Assembly (NCBI GenBank): GCA_018524725.1
Contig: JAEUWP010000224.1
Span: forward strand, 62,001-126,000
DNA length: 64,000 nt
Reading direction: 5' to 3'
DNA from: Podaxis mareebaensis
Taxonomy: Eukaryota > Basidiomycota > Agaricomycetes > Agaricales > Agaricaceae
The notes below the pieces were generated by a model. That model searched no databases, was not told the DNA's origin, and worked only from the letters and a program-made list of their open reading frames with translations. Positions 34,856 to 63,445 of the stretch are shown piece after piece. The stretch's first letter is position 1. The number at the start of each line of letters is the position of its first letter. Made by a program: the position numbers and the translations under genes.

Positions 34856-35091
34856 TTATTTCCCCTTGACCCCCTCGACCTTGTCAATCGCCTTGAATGC
34901 CTCGATAATATCGCTCGCTTCGGCATACGCCCCATGATTGTAAGTCTTCAGCCCCATACTGTTCATAAAATTCCGCCCCCCACCATACGCCTTGTAAATC
35001 GAGTCGGTGGAGGGGGAACGTAGTCTCCGCCCGAGTTGGAGGAGCGTTGGGAGCTGGCGCCTGCATTATTCTGGTTATTCTGCCTAGGCAT
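34856..35091 (-). pseudogene. Small paralogue of the H3-tail-mimic gene, frameshifted in a C-tract
   Basis: It starts MPRQNNQNNAGASSQRSS and, after a one-base frame change, continues DSIYKAYGGGRNFMNSMGLK and AEASDIIEAFKAIDKVEG to a TAA at 34856-34858. The second half is the same module as the C-terminus of the gene at 35966 (YIDSFGGYENFMISYGLK). The frame break lies in the run of five Cs near 35020; one additional base there would make the whole 78-codon frame continuous. It may be a real lesion or an assembly indel. The start MPR matches the MPRLKQTARKSTG copy in the larger paralogue, but the histone-like segment is replaced by an Asn/Ser-rich leader. Family unknown. Confidence 0.5.
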
Positions 35092-35965: not shown

Positions 35966-36667
35966 TCAATATTTTCCAAACTCCTCCAAGATCCGACTTC
36001 CCATCTCAATATCCTCGTCGTCCCACGGCTTCAGTCCATAACTGATCATGAAGTTTTCGTAGCCACCAAAGGAATCAATGTAATCCCCTTTGCTTTGACG
36101 GGCTGAACCTGCGCTCTGATAAGTATTATGTGAAACCTGCTGTTGCGAAGGGGCCTCACCTGTTGATTTCCTGGCAGTCTGTTTCAGACGAGGCATGCGA
36201 TGTGTTGAGGGAGCATTAACGCTCCTACTTTGGCTCGAGTGCGTATCCTGCACAGCGGACCTACTGCCAACGCCTGAACTTGAACCTGGTCCCTGCCACG
36301 ACGCGACACCGCCAGTGGCCTTCCCGGAGCCTCGCTCTTGTCTTTGTGCTGATGTGGAGGGTAGAGAAGAGGCTACAGTCGTGCTCCGGTCCGGCTGGGC
36401 ACTCTGAGAAGCCCCAGCTCGGTAAGGTGCAAATCCTCCTGTAGTTTTCCTAGCAGTTCGTGTCACCCTGCCCTGATGACCTTGTTCTGGGATGGGGGCT
36501 GGGGCTGGGGTTGGGATACTGGCGATGGTATGGGTCGATTGTGTATTTTGCGAAGAAGTGGGACGCCGCGGCACAAATCCGCCCGTTGACTTCCTGGCAG
36601 TCAGCTTGGTCCGCGGGGCACAGGGCATGATTTCGGGCGGTAGAGAAAGCAGGGCTGGCTGGGACAT
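35966..36667 (-). CDS. Protein with repeated histone H3 tail-like segments and a conserved C-terminal module
   Basis: I do not know this protein. One intronless frame of 233 codons from ATG 36667; an alternative start at 36628 would put the first mimic right at the N-terminus as MPCAPRTKLTARKSTGG. Histone H3 begins ARTKQTARKSTGGKAPRK. This protein has APRTKLTARKSTGGFVPRRP, then RVTRTARKTTGGFAPYRA, a worn copy GKATGGVASW, and MPRLKQTARKSTGEAPS, separated by Ser/Thr/Gln/Pro-rich linkers. H3 positions K4, R8, K9, S10 and T11 are kept in the best copies, while K14 is replaced by Phe. The C-terminus (GDYIDSFGGYENFM, SYGLKPWDDEDIEMGSRILE) is shared with the small neighbour at 34856. A decoy or substrate for histone writers, readers or erasers is a natural hypothesis, not a demonstrated function. 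Confidence 0.75.
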   Translation of the reverse strand: MSQPALLSLPPEIMPCAPRTKLTARKSTGGFVPRRPTSSQNTQSTHTIASIPTPAPAPIPEQGHQGRVTRTARKTTGGFAPYRAGASQSAQPDRSTTVASSLPSTSAQRQERGSGKATGGVASWQGPGSSSGVGSRSAVQDTHSSQSRSVNAPSTHRMPRLKQTARKSTGEAPSQQQVSHNTYQSAGSARQSKGDYIDSFGGYENFMISYGLKPWDDEDIEMGSRILEEFGKY

Positions 36668-38376: not shown

Positions 38377-40265
38377 TCAATACTTCCTCCTTTTCTTCTG
38401 CATGCTACCATCTATCAAATCGCCTGAAATTTGAGTGTTAGCAAATACAAAAAGAATGAAGAATAAATATACCGTCATCATTATCATCCTCACTCTCAGT
38501 GTGAGACTGTTTGCCTTTTGCCTCTGCCTTTGTCTTGAGTAGCGCCAAACCACCAGGTGAGCGAATCCTCAAGCGAACCGAGCTACAAGTGTTACGCGAA
38601 GGTGTCTCCAAAGGAGGCAGGTTTTCCTTGTTGCAACGGGAGAGTGTGAGCGTGAGTTTTTTCGGGGCAGGAGTCTTGATAGGAATCGTAGGCAGTGGTG
38701 GCATCTCATTACTAAACAGGACATTAGAGAACCCATAGCAAAGAAACAGAAGGAATTACTCCTCTGTTTGGCTCATATCCCCTGGGGACATGCTGTCATC
38801 GTCACTCTCATCGTCACTCTCATCATCCACCTCTTGGCCTTTATCTGATTGTGCACCCTGCTTATGATTTTCCTTGTTATGACAGGAGAGCGTGAGTGTG
38901 AGCTTTTTCGTAATGGGAGTCTTCACAGGAATCTTAGGCGGCGGCGGTGGCGGCATCTCGATACTGAACAAGACATTAGACAACTCATAGCAAAGAAACA
39001 AAAAGAATTACATACACGCTGTCATTGTCACTCTCATCGTCTTCACTGGATTCTTTGTCAGTAGTATTATCAGTGTGTGAATTAGTCTTGTCGTGGTTAT
39101 CCCAGCTGTGAGTATCATTGCTACCACCATTCGCTCGGGTGCTGGTATCCCTGCAAATGCAACTATCTCCTTCATCGCTTGAGCCATCGCTGTCTTCTCC
39201 AGTGTCAATGGGTTTTCCAGTTTGCTTAAGGCAAAGGGCAAAGTCATTTTCGCTATCGTTCGAGTCACCGCCATCACCTTCCGACGTTGGCGTTCCAAAA
39301 ATCAGACTGTAACAGAATGAGAGTAGACTCGAGACAAAGCAAAATATGAACCGAGTCCAACATTCTAAAGTCTCTGTGGCCCATGGATCCTTTTCGTTGC
39401 TGAGAAGGTCGACCAGGTTATTGAAGAACCTGATCTTGTTGAACTTATCCATTTCAGTGCGCCAGTCATCAACGCCCCAGAGCATATAGTGGGTCTGGAA
39501 TAACATTTAATTCGGTCCTCGTCAATAGCAAAGACATACATGGAGGATAGCATAAGCGAGCGTCTCTGGGGTGACGGTCTTGAGGCGGTGCAATTTAGCT
39601 TGACCACTATGAGTTTTCGCTTTCCTAAACTCCAACGTGGTCGCCGAGCTGGGGCCAGTAAAGAGGTGCTTGTATACCTGTAACAGTACATAAATAACAT
39701 TTCAGAAACTGTCAAGATACGTATGTAAACTCCAAGAGGGTCCTCGAGGAGGCCCTTGCGCATATTTTTGGGGTTATACTTGCCAGTGGGATACATAAAA
39801 GACGGAAACATGTTAGCCTTGACCTTGAGAGAACCTGCTTTTATCTTCACGATTGTGCTATAAGGTTGCAAATATCAGCAGCATGTCTAAAATATCAACG
39901 GATCTAACCCTTCTGGGTCCTTTTCATAATCCTTGCGATACCAAACGGGTAACAGAAGCTCCTGGATCTGAGGGTGGACCCAACCCCTGCTCGTCTCCTT
40001 TGATGCCAATGCCTTGATTGGAGGGTCAATGTTGCCACTGGGTACAACTGCAGTGATATAGTCGAGGCCTTTGAGCTTCAGCAAGCTCGCATCTTCGGAA
40101 CAAGCCTGTCTGGCAGCTCGGGTCATCTATTATAGAGTAGATCCGGTCAGCCAGAGTGCATATATTCTTTGCAATTCTTACATTCTTGGCGAGAACGAAG
40201 AATAGCTCGAGGTCAGAAAGCAGGCCTTCGAGTTTATATATAAGCCCAGGTACGTCTCTGACCAT
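38377..40265 (-). CDS. DUF6698-type fungal protein with duplicated KKLTLTLS exon
   Basis: The spliced minus strand gives VRDVPGLIYKLEGLLSDLEL, KGLDYITAVVPSGNIDPPIK, GWVHPQIQELLLPVWYRK, KANMFPSFMYPTGKYNPKN, MRKGLLEDPLGV, YKHLFTGPSSATTLEFRK, KLHRLKTVTPETLAYAILH and HYMLWGVDDWRTEMDKF. That order (..SRGFHH.. / P.FLY..G.YDP.N..KGLF / HIFT.PSS / K.VTP..IAY) is what I recall of DUF6698 proteins of Agaricomycetes. An acidic Ser/Asp-rich segment follows, then two tandem exons, 38760-38963 and 38473-38711. Both begin EMPP.P...PIKTP and contain KKLTLTLS..NKEN, with near-identical introns before them. The last exon ends SMQKKRRKY, a nuclear-signal-like tail, at 38377. The start is uncertain; ATG 40265 is the first Met of the domain frame and upstream exons may exist or be lost. 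Confidence 0.65.
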
Positions 40266-46276: not shown

Positions 46277-49200
46277 ATGGAGCGCAAGCAATGCAGCAGA
46301 AATCTCCCATGCCCCGCTGCACTGATATGCATGTTCTCTGCCTTGTTGCCATCTGCATTGAGCAAACACGAGCACAGTTGCCATTGGGTCAAGGAGCAAC
46401 GTGCTGCGTTCGCAGCCGGCATCCAAGCTAAGTGAAAAAATGAAGGCCCCAGACAGCGAGCTGTATTCAAGGTTCCTCATGGACCTCAGAGGGATGTATC
46501 TCAGAGTAGGAGCCGTGCTACACCCGAGGTATGTATCTACATTAACCGCTGTAACTACCCTGGATGACACTCGCCACATAGCCGCCGGTTGATGAGCCAG
46601 AATCAGAACCAGGACCAGGGCCCGTCAGTGCTCCAGCCCCGTCTCCAGATCACTCAGTGTATCCGACCCGATCTGGGCGTCAGCATAAGCAACCACGGTG
46701 GTTCAAAGATATGATTCTGTCGTTGCCTACCCCACTTCCTCACATGCCACTGCCACCGCCACCACCTCCTGAGGAGGTTGATGAACCCATGGGAGCTCAA
46801 GACAGTCCTTCTCCCCCTCCTTCTCTTGTCACTACTACATACGACACCCAACCAAACGATTTTGGTTTGTATCGGTCCTATACTGAATTCTTACATGTTG
46901 ATCCTGAGGAGGAGCAAACCGTGGATGACTTATGCGATGCACCAACCATGGCTGTCTCGAAGGATCCAGATAGGAGAACGTGGTGGGATAGCATCACTTC
47001 CAGGATCAGCGAAACTGTGAAAAGGAACATCTATGAACCTTTTCGCAATGCGACTACATTCAACCTCATGTTGTGGTATTACCAGAATAAGGGAAGCCTG
47101 ATGCTTGCCGCTGTTGATCAGGTCGTACATAATGTCATGCGCTCGGAAGATTTCAAACTGGAGGATCTTGAGGGTTTCAGTGCTGCCCGAGAGGCTCAAC
47201 GTCCCTTCAGGAACGTCGATCCAACCACCCCTGACTTTCTCAAGGAAGCGGGTTGGAATCAAGGATCTGTGACCTTGAAGCTCCCGGCTGAGCATCCCTC
47301 TCAAAGAAACCTTGAATCGGAAGCTCCAACAATTACTGTCAGAGGAATCTACTATCAGAAACTCACCGACATTGTTCGCACTGCATTTGCTGATCCTTCG
47401 GCTCGCAAATTCCATTACACTCCCTTCCGCCTCTATCGTAGACACTCTCAGAGTTCAGAACCAGAATGTATATACACGGAACTTTACAACTTGGACACTT
47501 TTTTAGAGGAACACAAGAAGCTTCAGAAGATAGCCTGGGAACCTGGTTGCAGGCTGGATCATTCTGTGGCTGCTATGATGCTCTGGTCGGACTCTACACA
47601 CCTGGCAAGCTTCGGGAATGCATCACTTTGGCCGATCTACTGTTACTTCGGAAACCAGTCGAAATACTCATGTTTGAAGCCATCGAACTATGCGGCACAC
47701 CATATCGCTTACATTCCAAAGGTGCGGGCTATTTGAACTTCAGTTTGAGATCTTTCTTTCTGACTGTACTGTCGCACAGATTCCCGATACAGTTGCAGAG
47801 CAATACATGGAAATCTTTGGTTCTCCACCTTCCGCAGCTGTTCTTACACACCTCAAATGAGACCTCATGCATGCATTATGGGAGTTGATTCTTGACGACG
47901 AGTTTCTCCATGCTTATGAACATGGAATTGTTGTCAAGTGTGCTGATGGCATAGAGAGGCGCCTCTACCCCCGCATCCTTACTTATTCGGCAGATTATCC
48001 TGAAAAGTATGCATCCACTTTTAATGCTGTATGTACTCTGATTTATTTACTTAGGATAATTCTATCTACAATCCAATACCTTGGACAATGCCCCTGTCCT
48101 CGGTGCTACATCTTGAAGGAAGAAATCATTGAATTGGGAACTGAGGCTGACTCCAAGCGGCGAAGCGCTGCATGGGAGGATACACCTCAAAGGCAAAAGG
48201 ACGTCGAAAAAGCTCGGCGTCAAATCTTCAATAAGGGCTGAGCAATCACCAGTGTACAAGTGGAGAACTTGCTCAAGCCATCATCCCAAGTTCCTACCCA
48301 CATAAGCCCTGTACTTCTTTGGCTTATCGAAGCTAATGATGTATTATAGAACGCCTTTTCACAGTGTTTATCACGTTTTGGGTTTGATTTTTATATGATT
48401 TTTGTTCCAGACTTACTGCATGAGTTCGAACTAGGTGTTTGGAAAGCAACATTTACACACCTGCTACGACTACTTGCTGCCAGTGGACATGGGAGGACAG
48501 GTATAGTGGACAAGAGGTACGCCAGAGCGATCGTCTTGTCAGTGCATCATTCATGATTGGTAGGTATCGTGATATTCCAAGATTTGGCCAAGACACTATT
48601 CATCGATTTTGTTCCAACGCTTTGGACATGAAGCAGTTAGCTGCGCGTGATTTTGAAGATCTACTGCAGGTATTTGTTCTTTTGTTGTTGACGTATGAGA
48701 ATATATTAATATCATTGGGGCCAGTGTTCAATTCCCGTCTTTCAGGGCCTTTTTCCTGAACCACACAATCAACTGGTCCTCGATCTCTTGTTTGTTCACT
48801 GTTGTTGGCATGCACTAGCAAAGTTACGGCTTCAAACAACATCAACCATTAATCTTCTTCAGCAGACAGTTCGTGCATTGGGATATTATCTCTGAAAATT
48901 CGTTAGGACTACGTGTGCTGCCTACGAGACCCATGAGCTGACTTGGGAGGCAGAAGCTCGTGTATGCTGAGAATCAAGAGATGCTAGTCATAAAGGAAAG
49001 GGTCGAGCTAGTGGACCACATGTCCGAAAGCTTAACCTCTTTACTTATAAGCTACACTCACTGGGAGACTATCCGAGTGCGATCCAATGATATGGTACAT
49101 CCGACGGGTTTTCAACTCAAGTTGTAAGTTAATAAGATCACTTTCTGTACTAGGATCTCAAGCTTTATTCATTTCTGATTAGGGTGAGCTTGAGCACCGT

Positions 49201-61161: not shown

Positions 61162-61852
61162 TGTCACAACCGCTCGCGCGCGTCCACGCTTACTTTCCCG
61201 CACTTATCCGATGTCTGAAAATCCGATATCTGATGTTCCGATTTCGCATGACTCCGATCCACTCGTTCCGTTGATGGATTTCCGTCCACCCTGTTATCCG
61301 AACAGGCGGGTGCGCGCACTCGGTCGCTCACGACCACTGCAACGAGTGTTGTTCATTTGCTTTTCCTTTATCGTCTCGGATCCTTTACCCTTGCCTCGGT
61401 CCATTTGTTCCTTGCTTCCGTTCTACGTTTTATTACATTCCGAACAGCCTCCTTTCCATTCCGCCTCCATACCTGTACCTTCCGCACGCTTCTAGTTTCT
61501 GCTTTACCTCCGAAATGTTTTACCTGTTTGTACTCACTTTTGTTCTCCGGTTATTTTCCTGTTCCCCGTTTCCGGTTCTCGACACGTATTTAAGCATAGT
61601 AGTTTCCTGTATCCGTTTCCTCAGTCTGAATATCAACTTCGTTATCCTCTTCCTCCTCTGTTCTACTCGTCAGTCCTCTGGGTCATCTTCCGACCACTCC
61701 TGCTGCTCGTCTGCACTCTGTCCCTCGTTCCCTCTGCCTCCGGGTTCCGTCTCTGTCCAAATTGGACCAACGTGATACCGGAAGGGCACAGCACATAAGC
61801 TGAGGCTGAGGTCTGCTCCCTGACGCCCTAGGTGCCTGTCCGGAACGTAACA
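61162..61852 (+). repeat. 5' long terminal repeat (putative limits)
   Basis: The proposed LTR starts TGTCACAACC and ends GGAACGTAACA, giving the usual TG..CA ends (TGT/ACA inverted). Inside, TATTTAA at 61587-61593 could be the TATA box. Without the 3' LTR the limits cannot be confirmed. A primer-binding site should start at 61853 (GTATATTCAG), but I could not match it to a tRNA. Confidence 0.55.
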
Positions 61853-61894
61853 GTATATTCAGACTCTGACTTCTGGTATTGCCATTTTTTTTCT

Positions 61895-63445
61895 ATGACT
61901 ACCAGAACTATTACTCGCGCCACCGCTCGTTCACAGAACATCACTATCCCCACTCATCCGCTTCCTTCGGGCACTCGTCGCCGCTCCTCCGCTGCCGCTT
62001 TTGGCTCCTCCACTCCCCGATTCCCCACATCCTGTTCCAACTCTCGAACCCTTAGTGCTACAACCAAAGAGCCACTCATGGACCAAGAGCCCAACGACTG
62101 GGAACTCACTGAACGCCAGTCCGAGGACGTCACAGAGTCCCAACCGGACAATAGAGAATCCCGTGTCCCCGATGACACTCAAGACGAGCTCGAGTACTAC
62201 GACCTGCCTGACGACCTGAATCCGGCCGACAATGCCGAAGGTCGGGATGATGGTCAGGGTGGTGGTGGTCCTCCAGGCGACGACCCCGGTGACAGTGATG
62301 GTCCAAGCGATGACAATGGCGATAGCGAACCTGAAGCCCGTGGCGCTCAGGAACCTCCCGAGGACGATGGTATGCGTTTTATGAGAGTCATGGAGAGACT
62401 CGCCCACGGTATCGAATCCAGCATACGCAACCAATCTGTCCCTCCTCCTCCTGTCGCGCGTCCCGAGAAGATCCAGGCAAAGGAACCCGACACCTTTGAC
62501 GGATCTAAGCCACACAAGCTTCCGGATTTCCTTTTCCAGTGTCACATCTATTTTAGGACGAACCCGCAACTTTTCCAAATGGAGACCACAAAAGTTAATT
62601 TCACCATTTCTTATCTTTCTGGGTTGGCACACCAATGGTTCCAGACCATCCTGGACTCGGAACCAGATTGGGATCAGATCCCATGGTACACCGACTGGAA
62701 ACTCCTCTCCGACGAACTCAATCTCTATTTCGGCGCCATTGACCCCATCACCGAAGCTGCCGAGGAACTCGAAAACCTCACCATGGCTAACAGGTCGCAT
62801 ATCTCCAAGTATAACGTCGAGTTCGCTCGTCTCGCTGGTCTCCTCAAGTGGCCCGACTCCGTCCTCTGCCATCACTACTACCGTGGTCTTCCGGACCAAA
62901 TCCAAGATGCCCTTGTCTCTCTTCCGAATGGCAAACCCACCTCCTATGCTGACATGCGTGCCACTGCAATGCGCATCGACAATTGCTACTGGGAACGCCA
63001 ACACGAGAAGAGCCAGGCTGGTAACTGGTCCGCATCACTCCACAACAAACAGGAGTCTCCACAACATTCCTCCGACAAGGGCAAGGGCAAGAACCTGCCT
63101 CCAACTGCCAAATCCAGCAACAGCAATAACTCCACCAACGCACCCCAGCAGTCCAGTAAGGGGTTCCATTCCGCCAAGCCCACTCCATCCACCAATCAGC
63201 CTTTGTCTTCATCCTCATCTTCATTTCCGCCCAAGTTGCTCTCCAACAAGCTCAGAAAGGATGGTAAGTTGACCCCCCAGGAACGCCAGTGTTGCATCGA
63301 CAACAAGTTATGTCTCTTTTGTGGCGAACTGGGTCATTGGGTCGACAACTGTCCGCAGAAATCCGCTAACAAGGCTAAGGCTCACAAGGCCACTGCGGAT
63401 GCCCCTCCCACTTCGGGTCCCCCTTCGGAGGGCTCGAAAAAATAG
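61895..63445 (+). CDS. gag: Retrotransposon Gag with zinc knuckle
   Basis: Gag forms the virus-like particle. From ATG 61895 (MTTRTITRATARSQ) the protein is 516 residues; the frame is open slightly upstream but without an ATG. The N-terminal 180 residues are Pro/Ser-rich then acidic (Asp/Gly-rich run). The Retrotrans_gag core follows: DTFDGSKPHKLPDFLFQCHI, LSGLAHQWFQTILDSEPDW, ELNLYFGAIDPITEAAEELE, FARLAGLLKWPDS and YRGLPDQIQDAL. A Ser/Asn/Lys-rich linker leads to the CCHC knuckle CLFCGELGHWVDNC, and then a basic tail ending SEGSKK. The TAG stop directly follows six A residues. Confidence 0.9.
   Translation: MTTRTITRATARSQNITIPTHPLPSGTRRRSSAAAFGSSTPRFPTSCSNSRTLSATTKEPLMDQEPNDWELTERQSEDVTESQPDNRESRVPDDTQDELEYYDLPDDLNPADNAEGRDDGQGGGGPPGDDPGDSDGPSDDNGDSEPEARGAQEPPEDDGMRFMRVMERLAHGIESSIRNQSVPPPPVARPEKIQAKEPDTFDGSKPHKLPDFLFQCHIYFRTNPQLFQMETTKVNFTISYLSGLAHQWFQTILDSEPDWDQIPWYTDWKLLSDELNLYFGAIDPITEAAEELENLTMANRSHISKYNVEFARLAGLLKWPDSVLCHHYYRGLPDQIQDALVSLPNGKPTSYADMRATAMRIDNCYWERQHEKSQAGNWSASLHNKQESPQHSSDKGKGKNLPPTAKSSNSNNSTNAPQQSSKGFHSAKPTPSTNQPLSSSSSSFPPKLLSNKLRKDGKLTPQERQCCIDNKLCLFCGELGHWVDNCPQKSANKAKAHKATADAPPTSGPPSEGSKK
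63437..63445 (+). promoter_or_regulatory. Candidate -1 ribosomal frameshift site (A6 then gag stop)
   Basis: GAAAAAATAG: the last two gag codons are AAA AAA, followed by TAG. Pol is open in the -1 frame straight through this point. The A6 run is a plausible slip site, although it is not a textbook heptamer. Confidence 0.45.

What the first reader, a model, noticed from the sequence alone, without database searches (positions are those of the whole stretch)
35966..36667. Non-histone protein carrying three to four near-copies of the histone H3 tail
Four spaced segments imitate the first ~18 residues of H3: APRTKLTARKSTGGFVPRRP, RVTRTARKTTGGFAPYRA, a worn GKATGGVASW, and MPRLKQTARKSTGEAPS. The TARKSTGG core (K9/S10/T11 region, with K4 in the best copies) is kept while position 14 is not lysine, and no histone fold follows. 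Multivalent H3-tail peptides on a soluble Ser/Pro-rich scaffold could titrate or recruit H3 readers and writers (HP1-like chromodomains, K4/K9 methyltransferases, S10 kinases). H3-tail mimicry is known in single-copy form in other proteins; a tandem array encoded in a mobile-element-rich fungal locus seems unusual. Novelty is not verified.
Basis: partly seen in the sequence, partly recalled or inferred. Interest (0 to 1): 0.88.

Follow-up and report, generated by a model that had tools for sequence, protein, structure and literature searches.

The report
Protein with repeated histone H3 tails
A mushroom-type fungus encodes a small non-histone protein that strings together several imitations of the histone H3 tail, and other fungi have proteins of the same design, which suggests a natural decoy or docking strip for the gene-silencing machinery that still has to be tested.

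Summary
ORF 35966-36667 (minus strand, 233 aa) carries three intact TARK[S/T]TG cores plus one worn copy and no histone fold. None of 200,000 shuffles of the protein gave two cores.

It is not unique. Five other proteins without a Pfam histone match carry 3-4 spaced H3-tail copies: Heterobasidion irregulare, Peniophora sp. and three unnamed metagenome-type proteins; a Crepidotus protein carries one. In the 24 copies of these seven proteins, K9 and G12 are kept 24/24, R8 and S/T10 23/24, K4 16/24, but K14 only 1/24. The window's intact cores differ from each other mostly at synonymous sites. R8-G12 is what the Neurospora H3K9 methyltransferase DIM-5 needs in vitro, and H3 K14R is there a semi-dominant silencing mutation that leaves DIM-5 activity intact (PMC3248561).

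Best explanation: a soluble, multivalent, K9-competent, K14-less H3 decoy or docking strip for the H3K9 writer and chromodomain proteins. Direction, expression and methylation are inferred. The C-terminus is a separate small domain of unknown function, found at two further places in the genome without H3 tails. My eight literature searches listed no H3-tail arrays. New variant of a known kind (histone mimicry).

The parts
35966..36667 (-). 233-aa ORF of the H3-tail array protein (P0001), stop codon included
   Evidence: ATG with A at -3; single open frame
36560..36619 (-). H3-tail copy 1, APRTKLTARKSTGGFVPRRP (residues 17-36; K9-equivalent K26)
36416..36475 (-). H3-tail copy 2, QGRVTRTARKTTGGFAPYRA (residues 65-84; K9-equivalent K74; no K4)
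36290..36349 (-). worn copy 3, AQRQERGSGKATGGVASWQG (residues 107-126; K9-equivalent K116, R8 lost)
36137..36196 (-). H3-tail copy 4, MPRLKQTARKSTGEAPSQQQ (residues 158-177; K9-equivalent K167)
35969..36094 (-). C-terminal small helical domain (residues 192-233, FGGYENFMISYGLKPWD...), shared with a family of 71-86-aa proteins
   Evidence: 24 of 41 identical to the C24 paralogue
34856..35091 (-). neighbouring diverged relative of the small C-terminal-domain family, without H3 tails, lying in two different frames (broken, or split by an unrecognised intron)

Best explanation
The protein is a soluble, largely disordered, multivalent mimic of the H3K9 region of the H3 tail. Shown: three intact copies and one worn copy; strong conservation of K9 and its immediate context across seven proteins; loss of K14 in nearly every copy. 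Inferred: the copies are methylated by the host's Clr4/DIM-5-type H3K9 methyltransferase and, once methylated, bound by chromodomain proteins (HP1-like readers and possibly the chromodomains of the many retroelements). Because K14 is missing and no histone fold is present, a bound copy cannot become productive heterochromatin, so the protein most likely works as a tunable decoy that draws off writer and readers and so weakens silencing. A docking hub that gathers them is the close alternative. The C-terminal domain probably confers some other interaction or localisation.
For: Array verified and beyond chance. Non-histone proteins with 3-4 copies: P0003, P0004, P0006 (unnamed, metagenome-type sources), P0005 (Heterobasidion irregulare) and P0016 (Peniophora sp. 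CONT); P0048 (Crepidotus variabilis) has one; no histone domain in any of the seven by Pfam. Over 24 copies: K9 24, G12 24, R8 23, T6 23, A7 23, S or T at 10 in 23, T11 23, P16 21, K4 16, K14 1 (H 8, R 7); R8-K9-[ST]-[ST]-G12 is intact in 23 of 24. The three intact cores within the window protein differ by 3-5 synonymous against 0-1 non-synonymous changes per pair; neutral simulations give as few or fewer non-synonymous changes in 0.4%, 2.1% and 6.7% of runs. [quoted passage not shown] The host has a gene with a Clr4-like Pre-SET region, at least 150 chromodomain stretches and five C5-methylase matches. The three host H3-tail genes found all keep K14.
Against: No expression, localisation or modification data. 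No full-length orthologue with the same C-terminus was found at E <= 1, so selection on this gene is judged only from its own internal copies, on 7 codons, and one of three pair tests is not below 5%. In the single-sequence search the other array proteins score weakly (E 0.015 to 0.86): they share the motif, not a demonstrable common scaffold; the five profile members score well by construction, and P0048 scores no better than true histones. Copies within a protein, and P0003/P0006, are not independent. The profile was built from five proteins without K14, and only 120 of 4668 hits were listed, so the K14 figure may be biased. No chromo-shadow domain was found in the genome (inconclusive, because introns split domains and the family rang in no control). 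DIM-5 specificity is from an ascomycete; the paper's text and its summary table disagree on A7M and partly on G13. The semi-dominant K14R effect was measured in real nucleosomal H3, and a K14Q strain kept H3K9 methylation and HP1 binding nearly unchanged.
Confidence: 0.48

Rival explanations
1. Multivalent hub rather than decoy: methylated copies bridge several HP1-type readers or writers and help to seed or condense heterochromatin (a soluble nucleation platform).
For: Spacing of 42-94 residues between neighbouring K9-equivalents (positions) suits several independent binding events; the residues needed by DIM-5 are intact. The host has abundant chromodomain-bearing stretches, presumably retroelements, to silence.
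Against: K14, which matters downstream of K9 methylation in Neurospora, is missing in 23 of 24 copies. No DNA-, RNA- or chromatin-binding domain was recognised.
Confidence: 0.22
2. Mitotic kinase substrate or scaffold: the S10/T11 (and T3) positions are the real target, for Aurora- or haspin-type kinases or 14-3-3 proteins.
For: S or T at position 10 in 23 of 24, T or S at 11 in 24 of 24, R8 in 23 of 24.
Against: G12 (24 of 24) and A7 (23 of 24) are as strongly kept as S/T10, and T3 in only 11 of 24. A K9 requirement is not expected for an R-x-S/T kinase site (recalled).
Confidence: 0.1
3. Evolutionary accident: H3-tail-like peptides spread in a disordered N-terminal region by internal duplication and have no chromatin role (perhaps only nuclear import).
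For: The linkers between the copies are low-complexity (73% S/T/P/G/Q/A over 95 residues). One of four copies in the window protein is worn. Copies 1, 2 and 4 share the AGG arginine codon, unlike the host H3 tails (CGC), which suggests duplication from one another.
Against: The cores resist amino-acid change while synonymous sites diverge. The same design recurs without the window's C-terminal domain in two Russulales families and in unnamed proteins. Basic residues would suffice for import, but K14 and K18 are lost while T11, G12 and G13 stay.
Confidence: 0.16
4. Misread or captured fragment of a true H3 gene, or a pseudogene.
For: Copy 4 begins MPR.KQTARKSTG like an H3 start; one host H3 gene has a 25-nt exon encoding most of QTARKSTGG that could in principle be copied.
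Against: No histone fold; the three intact cores differ from the C47 H3 core at 4-6 synonymous positions, so it is no recent copy; the frame is open for 233 codons and ends in a domain homologous to other proteins.
Confidence: 0.04

Closest known systems
Canonical histone H3 N-terminal tail
   Same: Residues 2-13, above all Q5-G13, nearly letter for letter; S10/T11 mostly kept
   Different: Several internal copies per protein, K14 lost, no histone fold, no free N-terminus except in the first copy of P0003, P0004 and P0006
Single-site H3K9 mimics in nuclear proteins (candidates in PMC10611923, listing and abstract opening only; ATF7IP as a ligand of MPP8 is recalled, PMC7618375 seen in a listing only)
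   Same: ARK[S/T]-type peptide in a non-histone protein, plausible K9-writer substrate and chromodomain ligand
   Different: There, as I recall them, one short site; here 3-4 longer copies on a dedicated small protein
Viral H3 mimics (SARS-CoV-2 ORF8 ARKS, disputed in PMC10833455; hepatitis delta antigen, PMC6972770; listings and abstract openings only)
   Same: Histone-like feature thought to engage host chromatin factors
   Different: Here encoded in the fungus's own genome; 47 pattern matches in viral contigs gave no confirmed relative
[quoted passage not shown] its K27M-like peptide is recalled)
   Same: A dedicated protein whose H3-like peptide would act on a histone methyltransferase
   Different: Here the target lysine K9 is kept, so substrate or ligand decoy, not K-to-M inhibition
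Small SYGLKPWD-type proteins (P0007-P0014; one named: Leucoagaricus AN958_03620)
   Same: The C-terminal ~40 residues (24 of 41 identical to the own-genome paralogue)
   Different: None of the eight has an ARK[S/T] motif; function unknown

Membership tests
Histone H3 | histone fold (PF00125) | tested here: not met
   no histone match in P0001, P0004, P0005 or P0003, P0006, P0016, P0048
Histone H3 | N-terminal ARTKQTARKSTGGKAPRK | tested here: not met
   in the window protein only near-copies, internal, K14 replaced
Histone mimic (functional class) | H3-like peptide in a non-histone protein, beyond chance | tested here: met
Histone mimic (functional class) | conserved target residue and context | tested here: met
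   K9 24/24, R8-G12 intact in 23/24 copies; synonymous excess within the window protein, two of three pairs below 5%
Histone mimic (functional class) | modified or bound by histone writers or readers | not testable with these tools
   needs biochemistry or proteomics
K-to-M type methyltransferase inhibitor (EZHIP-like) | target lysine replaced by methionine (recalled) | tested here: not met
   K9 kept in 24 of 24 copies
SYGLKPWD-type small protein family | C-terminal FGGY..FM.SYGLKPW...D...G..IL..F | tested here: met
SYGLKPWD-type small protein family | length 71-86 aa, no H3 tails | tested here: not met
   233 aa with four copies; the H3-likeness of the small proteins' own N-termini is weak and inconsistent

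The most novel reading that the evidence does not exclude
Agaricomycete fungi carry a rapidly evolving, endogenous class of H3-tail array proteins, K9-competent but K14-less, that act as built-in anti-silencing decoys: good substrates and ligands for the H3K9 machinery that reproduce, in soluble form, the semi-dominant K14R mutant of Neurospora H3. They may have arisen in conflict between the host, its heterochromatin and its many chromodomain-bearing retroelements.
Probability: 0.3. Interest if true: 0.92.

Novelty: new variant of a known kind. Interest (0 to 1): 0.78.

Why it matters
The histone mimics that my searches listed are mostly single sites in viral or nuclear proteins. A cellular protein class built around repeated H3K9 regions with K14 removed would be a natural, genetically encoded probe of what H3K14 does after K9 methylation, a step that PMC3248561 leaves unexplained. 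It would also give fungi a tunable regulator of heterochromatin, and a ready design for a multivalent reader trap.

Tried and rejected
Fold of the C-terminal domain: AlphaFold gives three short helices (mean pLDDT 62.6, best ten-residue blocks 88 and 90); Foldseek against the PDB found five matches at E <= 10, none at E <= 0.001, so no function is inferred. Pfam's HNH_repeat line appears below its cut-off in three of the five proteins with this domain that I scanned (P0001 E 0.11, P0007 E 0.044, P0008 E 0.18; not P0011 or P0012): too weak to accept, left as a lead.

Idea that the small family's own N-terminus is a worn H3 tail: shuffle test on eight N-termini (seven small proteins and the neighbour; P0013 left out because it lacks that region) is weak and inconsistent (28, 38, 92, 143, 199, 265, 812 and 1327 of 2000 shuffles reach the score; copy 4 itself 0 of 2000). 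Not claimed.

Viral origin: 47 pattern matches in viral contigs, none a confirmed relative. Prokaryotic arrays: 61 pattern matches in GTDB contigs, six confirmed loci, each with a single motif in H3-like sequence or its beginning, probably eukaryotic contamination of MAGs. Of the 120 rows listed, seven lack histone domains (the six kept plus P0002, the window protein in a shortened model); the other 113 carry precomputed histone domains and were set aside although most hold two TARK-type motifs.

Sigma-70 promoter and terminator scan: uninformative in a fungus. Chromo-shadow search: none found, inconclusive. Own-genome search with P0004 found two H3 genes and this protein. PDB sequence search with P0001 gave only weak H3-tail matches (best E 0.054). 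The weak third match on C374 (E 0.0086) was not pursued.

Literature: eight searches (one search held no paper). In the titles and abstract openings listed I saw no paper on tandem H3-tail proteins, in fungi or elsewhere. The library holds only openly licensed PMC papers, and result lists were truncated. Two papers were opened: PMC3248561 (abstract, section list and 12 passages) and PMC8303541 (8 passages).

Full report
WHAT IS THERE. The frame 35966-36667 on the minus strand encodes 233 aa. It holds three intact TARK[S/T]TG cores with K9-equivalents at residues 26, 74 and 167, and a worn copy at 116. In 200,000 shuffles of the protein, 3 gave one such core and none gave more. Pfam finds no histone fold. 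In the 36.95 Mb assembly, the degenerate DNA pattern for the core hits 12 places against 3 for the reversed control; three are genes with an H3 tail (C47, C345, C400), three are this protein, and of the other six only one (C169) reads TARKSTG (translations).

SURROUNDINGS. On one side lie an LRR-like frame (below Pfam's cut-off), Nup188 and, further off, an M24 peptidase, an fn3/BRCT frame that I take for CHS5-like, and Vps41; on the other side DUF6698 pieces, a Plavaka transposase and a retrotransposon gag (20 of 85 long frames scanned). So the gene sits near a border between conserved genes and mobile elements. About 0.9 kb downstream on the same strand (34856-35091) is a diverged relative of the C-terminal domain, split over two frames, without H3 tails.

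THE C-TERMINUS. Residues 192-233 are homologous (24 of 41 identical) to an 83-aa own-genome protein on C24 (also P0007) and to seven further small proteins, P0008-P0014, one of them named, from Leucoagaricus (Agaricales). None of these eight has an ARK[S/T] motif. AlphaFold predicts a small helical unit; no known fold was matched. Function unknown. Copy 4 begins with a methionine (MPRLKQ...) where most of the small proteins begin (MPR or MAR), which suggests that H3-like copies were built at and upstream of a former N-terminus; this is inference.

OTHER ARRAYS. Two searches of about 5.8 billion proteins gave non-histone proteins with the same design: P0005 of Heterobasidion irregulare (3 copies), P0016 of Peniophora sp. 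CONT (4), unnamed P0003, P0004 and P0006 (4 each, the first copy at the very N-terminus), and P0048 of Crepidotus variabilis with one copy after a region that looks coiled-coil-like (taxonomy; Pfam). None of the six contains SYGLK or FGGY, the hallmarks of the window protein's C-terminal domain. The single-sequence scores are weak (E 0.015, 0.05, 0.76 and 0.86 for P0003, P0004, P0005 and P0006), so the motif is shared but a common scaffold is not shown. Whether they are one fast-evolving family or repeated inventions is open; the recurring GGHAP in five of seven proteins (8 of 24 copies) hints at shared descent or shared selection. Only 120 of 4668 hits were displayed, 113 of them with histone domains, so the number of arrays is a lower bound.

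CONSTRAINT. Counting 24 copies in seven proteins (rule: K[STA][ST]G preceded by at least two of T-A-R, plus the worn window copy included by hand; P0002, the window protein itself in a shortened model, left out; no gaps allowed): R2 22, T3 11, K4 16, Q5 19, T6 23, A7 23, R8 23, K9 24, S10 15 (T 8, A 1), T11 23 (S 1), G12 24, G13 22, K14 1 (H 8, R 7, F 2, A 2, S 2, V 1, G 1), A15 15, P16 21, R17 12, K18 1. K9 and G12 are part of the selection rule, so their 24 of 24 is partly by construction; the other positions are not fixed by it, T6-R8 and positions 10-11 only in part. K14 is far below its neighbours (Fisher against A15 3e-5, against P16 4e-9; copies are not independent, so these values are only indicative). 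Within the window protein, pairs of intact cores (7 codons) show 5:1, 3:0 and 3:1 synonymous to non-synonymous differences; neutral simulations reach as few or fewer non-synonymous changes in 0.4%, 2.1% and 6.7% of runs. All three share the arginine codon AGG, unlike the three host H3 tails (CGC), which suggests that they are duplicates of each other and not recent copies of H3.

HOW IT MOST LIKELY WORKS. The conserved block fits the H3K9 writer. In Neurospora only residues R8-G12 are required for DIM-5 in vitro, while the text reports no significant effect of K4L, A7M, K14R, A15M and P16A; the paper's own table lists A7M as impaired, and G13M was slightly impaired. K14R and K14Q in an ectopic H3 nonetheless cause loss of DNA methylation beside wild-type H3, and for K14R DIM-5 activity was shown to be normal (PMC3248561, abstract and passages). 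Human SUV39H enzymes read an RKST motif with neighbours on both sides (PMC8303541, passages); there SUV39H2 also weighs K14, which the arrays lack. The array proteins keep just that block and drop K14. The host has one Pre-SET match, whose best solved relatives are H3K9 methyltransferases including Clr4 (only the Pre-SET part was compared), at least 150 chromodomain stretches, many with a TGA inside and presumably from retroelements, and five C5-methylase matches. The three H3-tail genes found keep K14. I therefore propose a multivalent H3K9 decoy; the steps of methylation, reader binding and weakened silencing are inferred. A docking hub is the main rival and cannot be excluded, because K14 may simply be unneeded outside the nucleosome.

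NOVELTY. Single-site histone mimics are known; eight literature searches listed no tandem H3-tail protein, within an openly licensed library and truncated lists. I rate it a new variant of a known kind.

Noticed in passing
34856-35091 (-): Diverged relative of the small SYGLKPWD-type family, its N- and C-terminal halves in different frames (broken copy or unrecognised intron).
   Followed up: partly
L022 (G000:C400): One host H3 gene splits its tail over introns so that a 25-nt exon encodes most of QTARKSTGG; the H3 genes on C47 and C345 have no intron there.
   Followed up: partly
genome-wide: At least 150 chromodomain stretches (239 candidates, 150 scored), many with one or two TGA stops inside, as if CGA codons had decayed by methylation-linked mutation.
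   Followed up: no
46582-47730 (+), 38991-39874 (-), 61832-63439 (+): Plavaka transposase match, two DUF6698 pieces in different frames, and a retrotransposon gag on the right half of the window.
   Followed up: no
P0048 (Crepidotus variabilis CPB83DRAFT_902499), residues 275-294: One near-perfect H3 tail (MPRTKQTARKSTGGHAPRKQ, K14 to H) inside a 393-aa protein with a coiled-coil-like first half and no histone domain.
   Followed up: partly
P0003, P0004, P0006: The first copy is at the exact N-terminus (MAR[TSA]KQTARK), so it could also offer a free alanine to K4 readers, unlike the internal copies.
   Followed up: no
C-terminal domain, residues 192-233 of the window protein: A sub-threshold Pfam HNH_repeat match recurs in three of five scanned proteins with this domain; perhaps a distant relation.
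   Followed up: no
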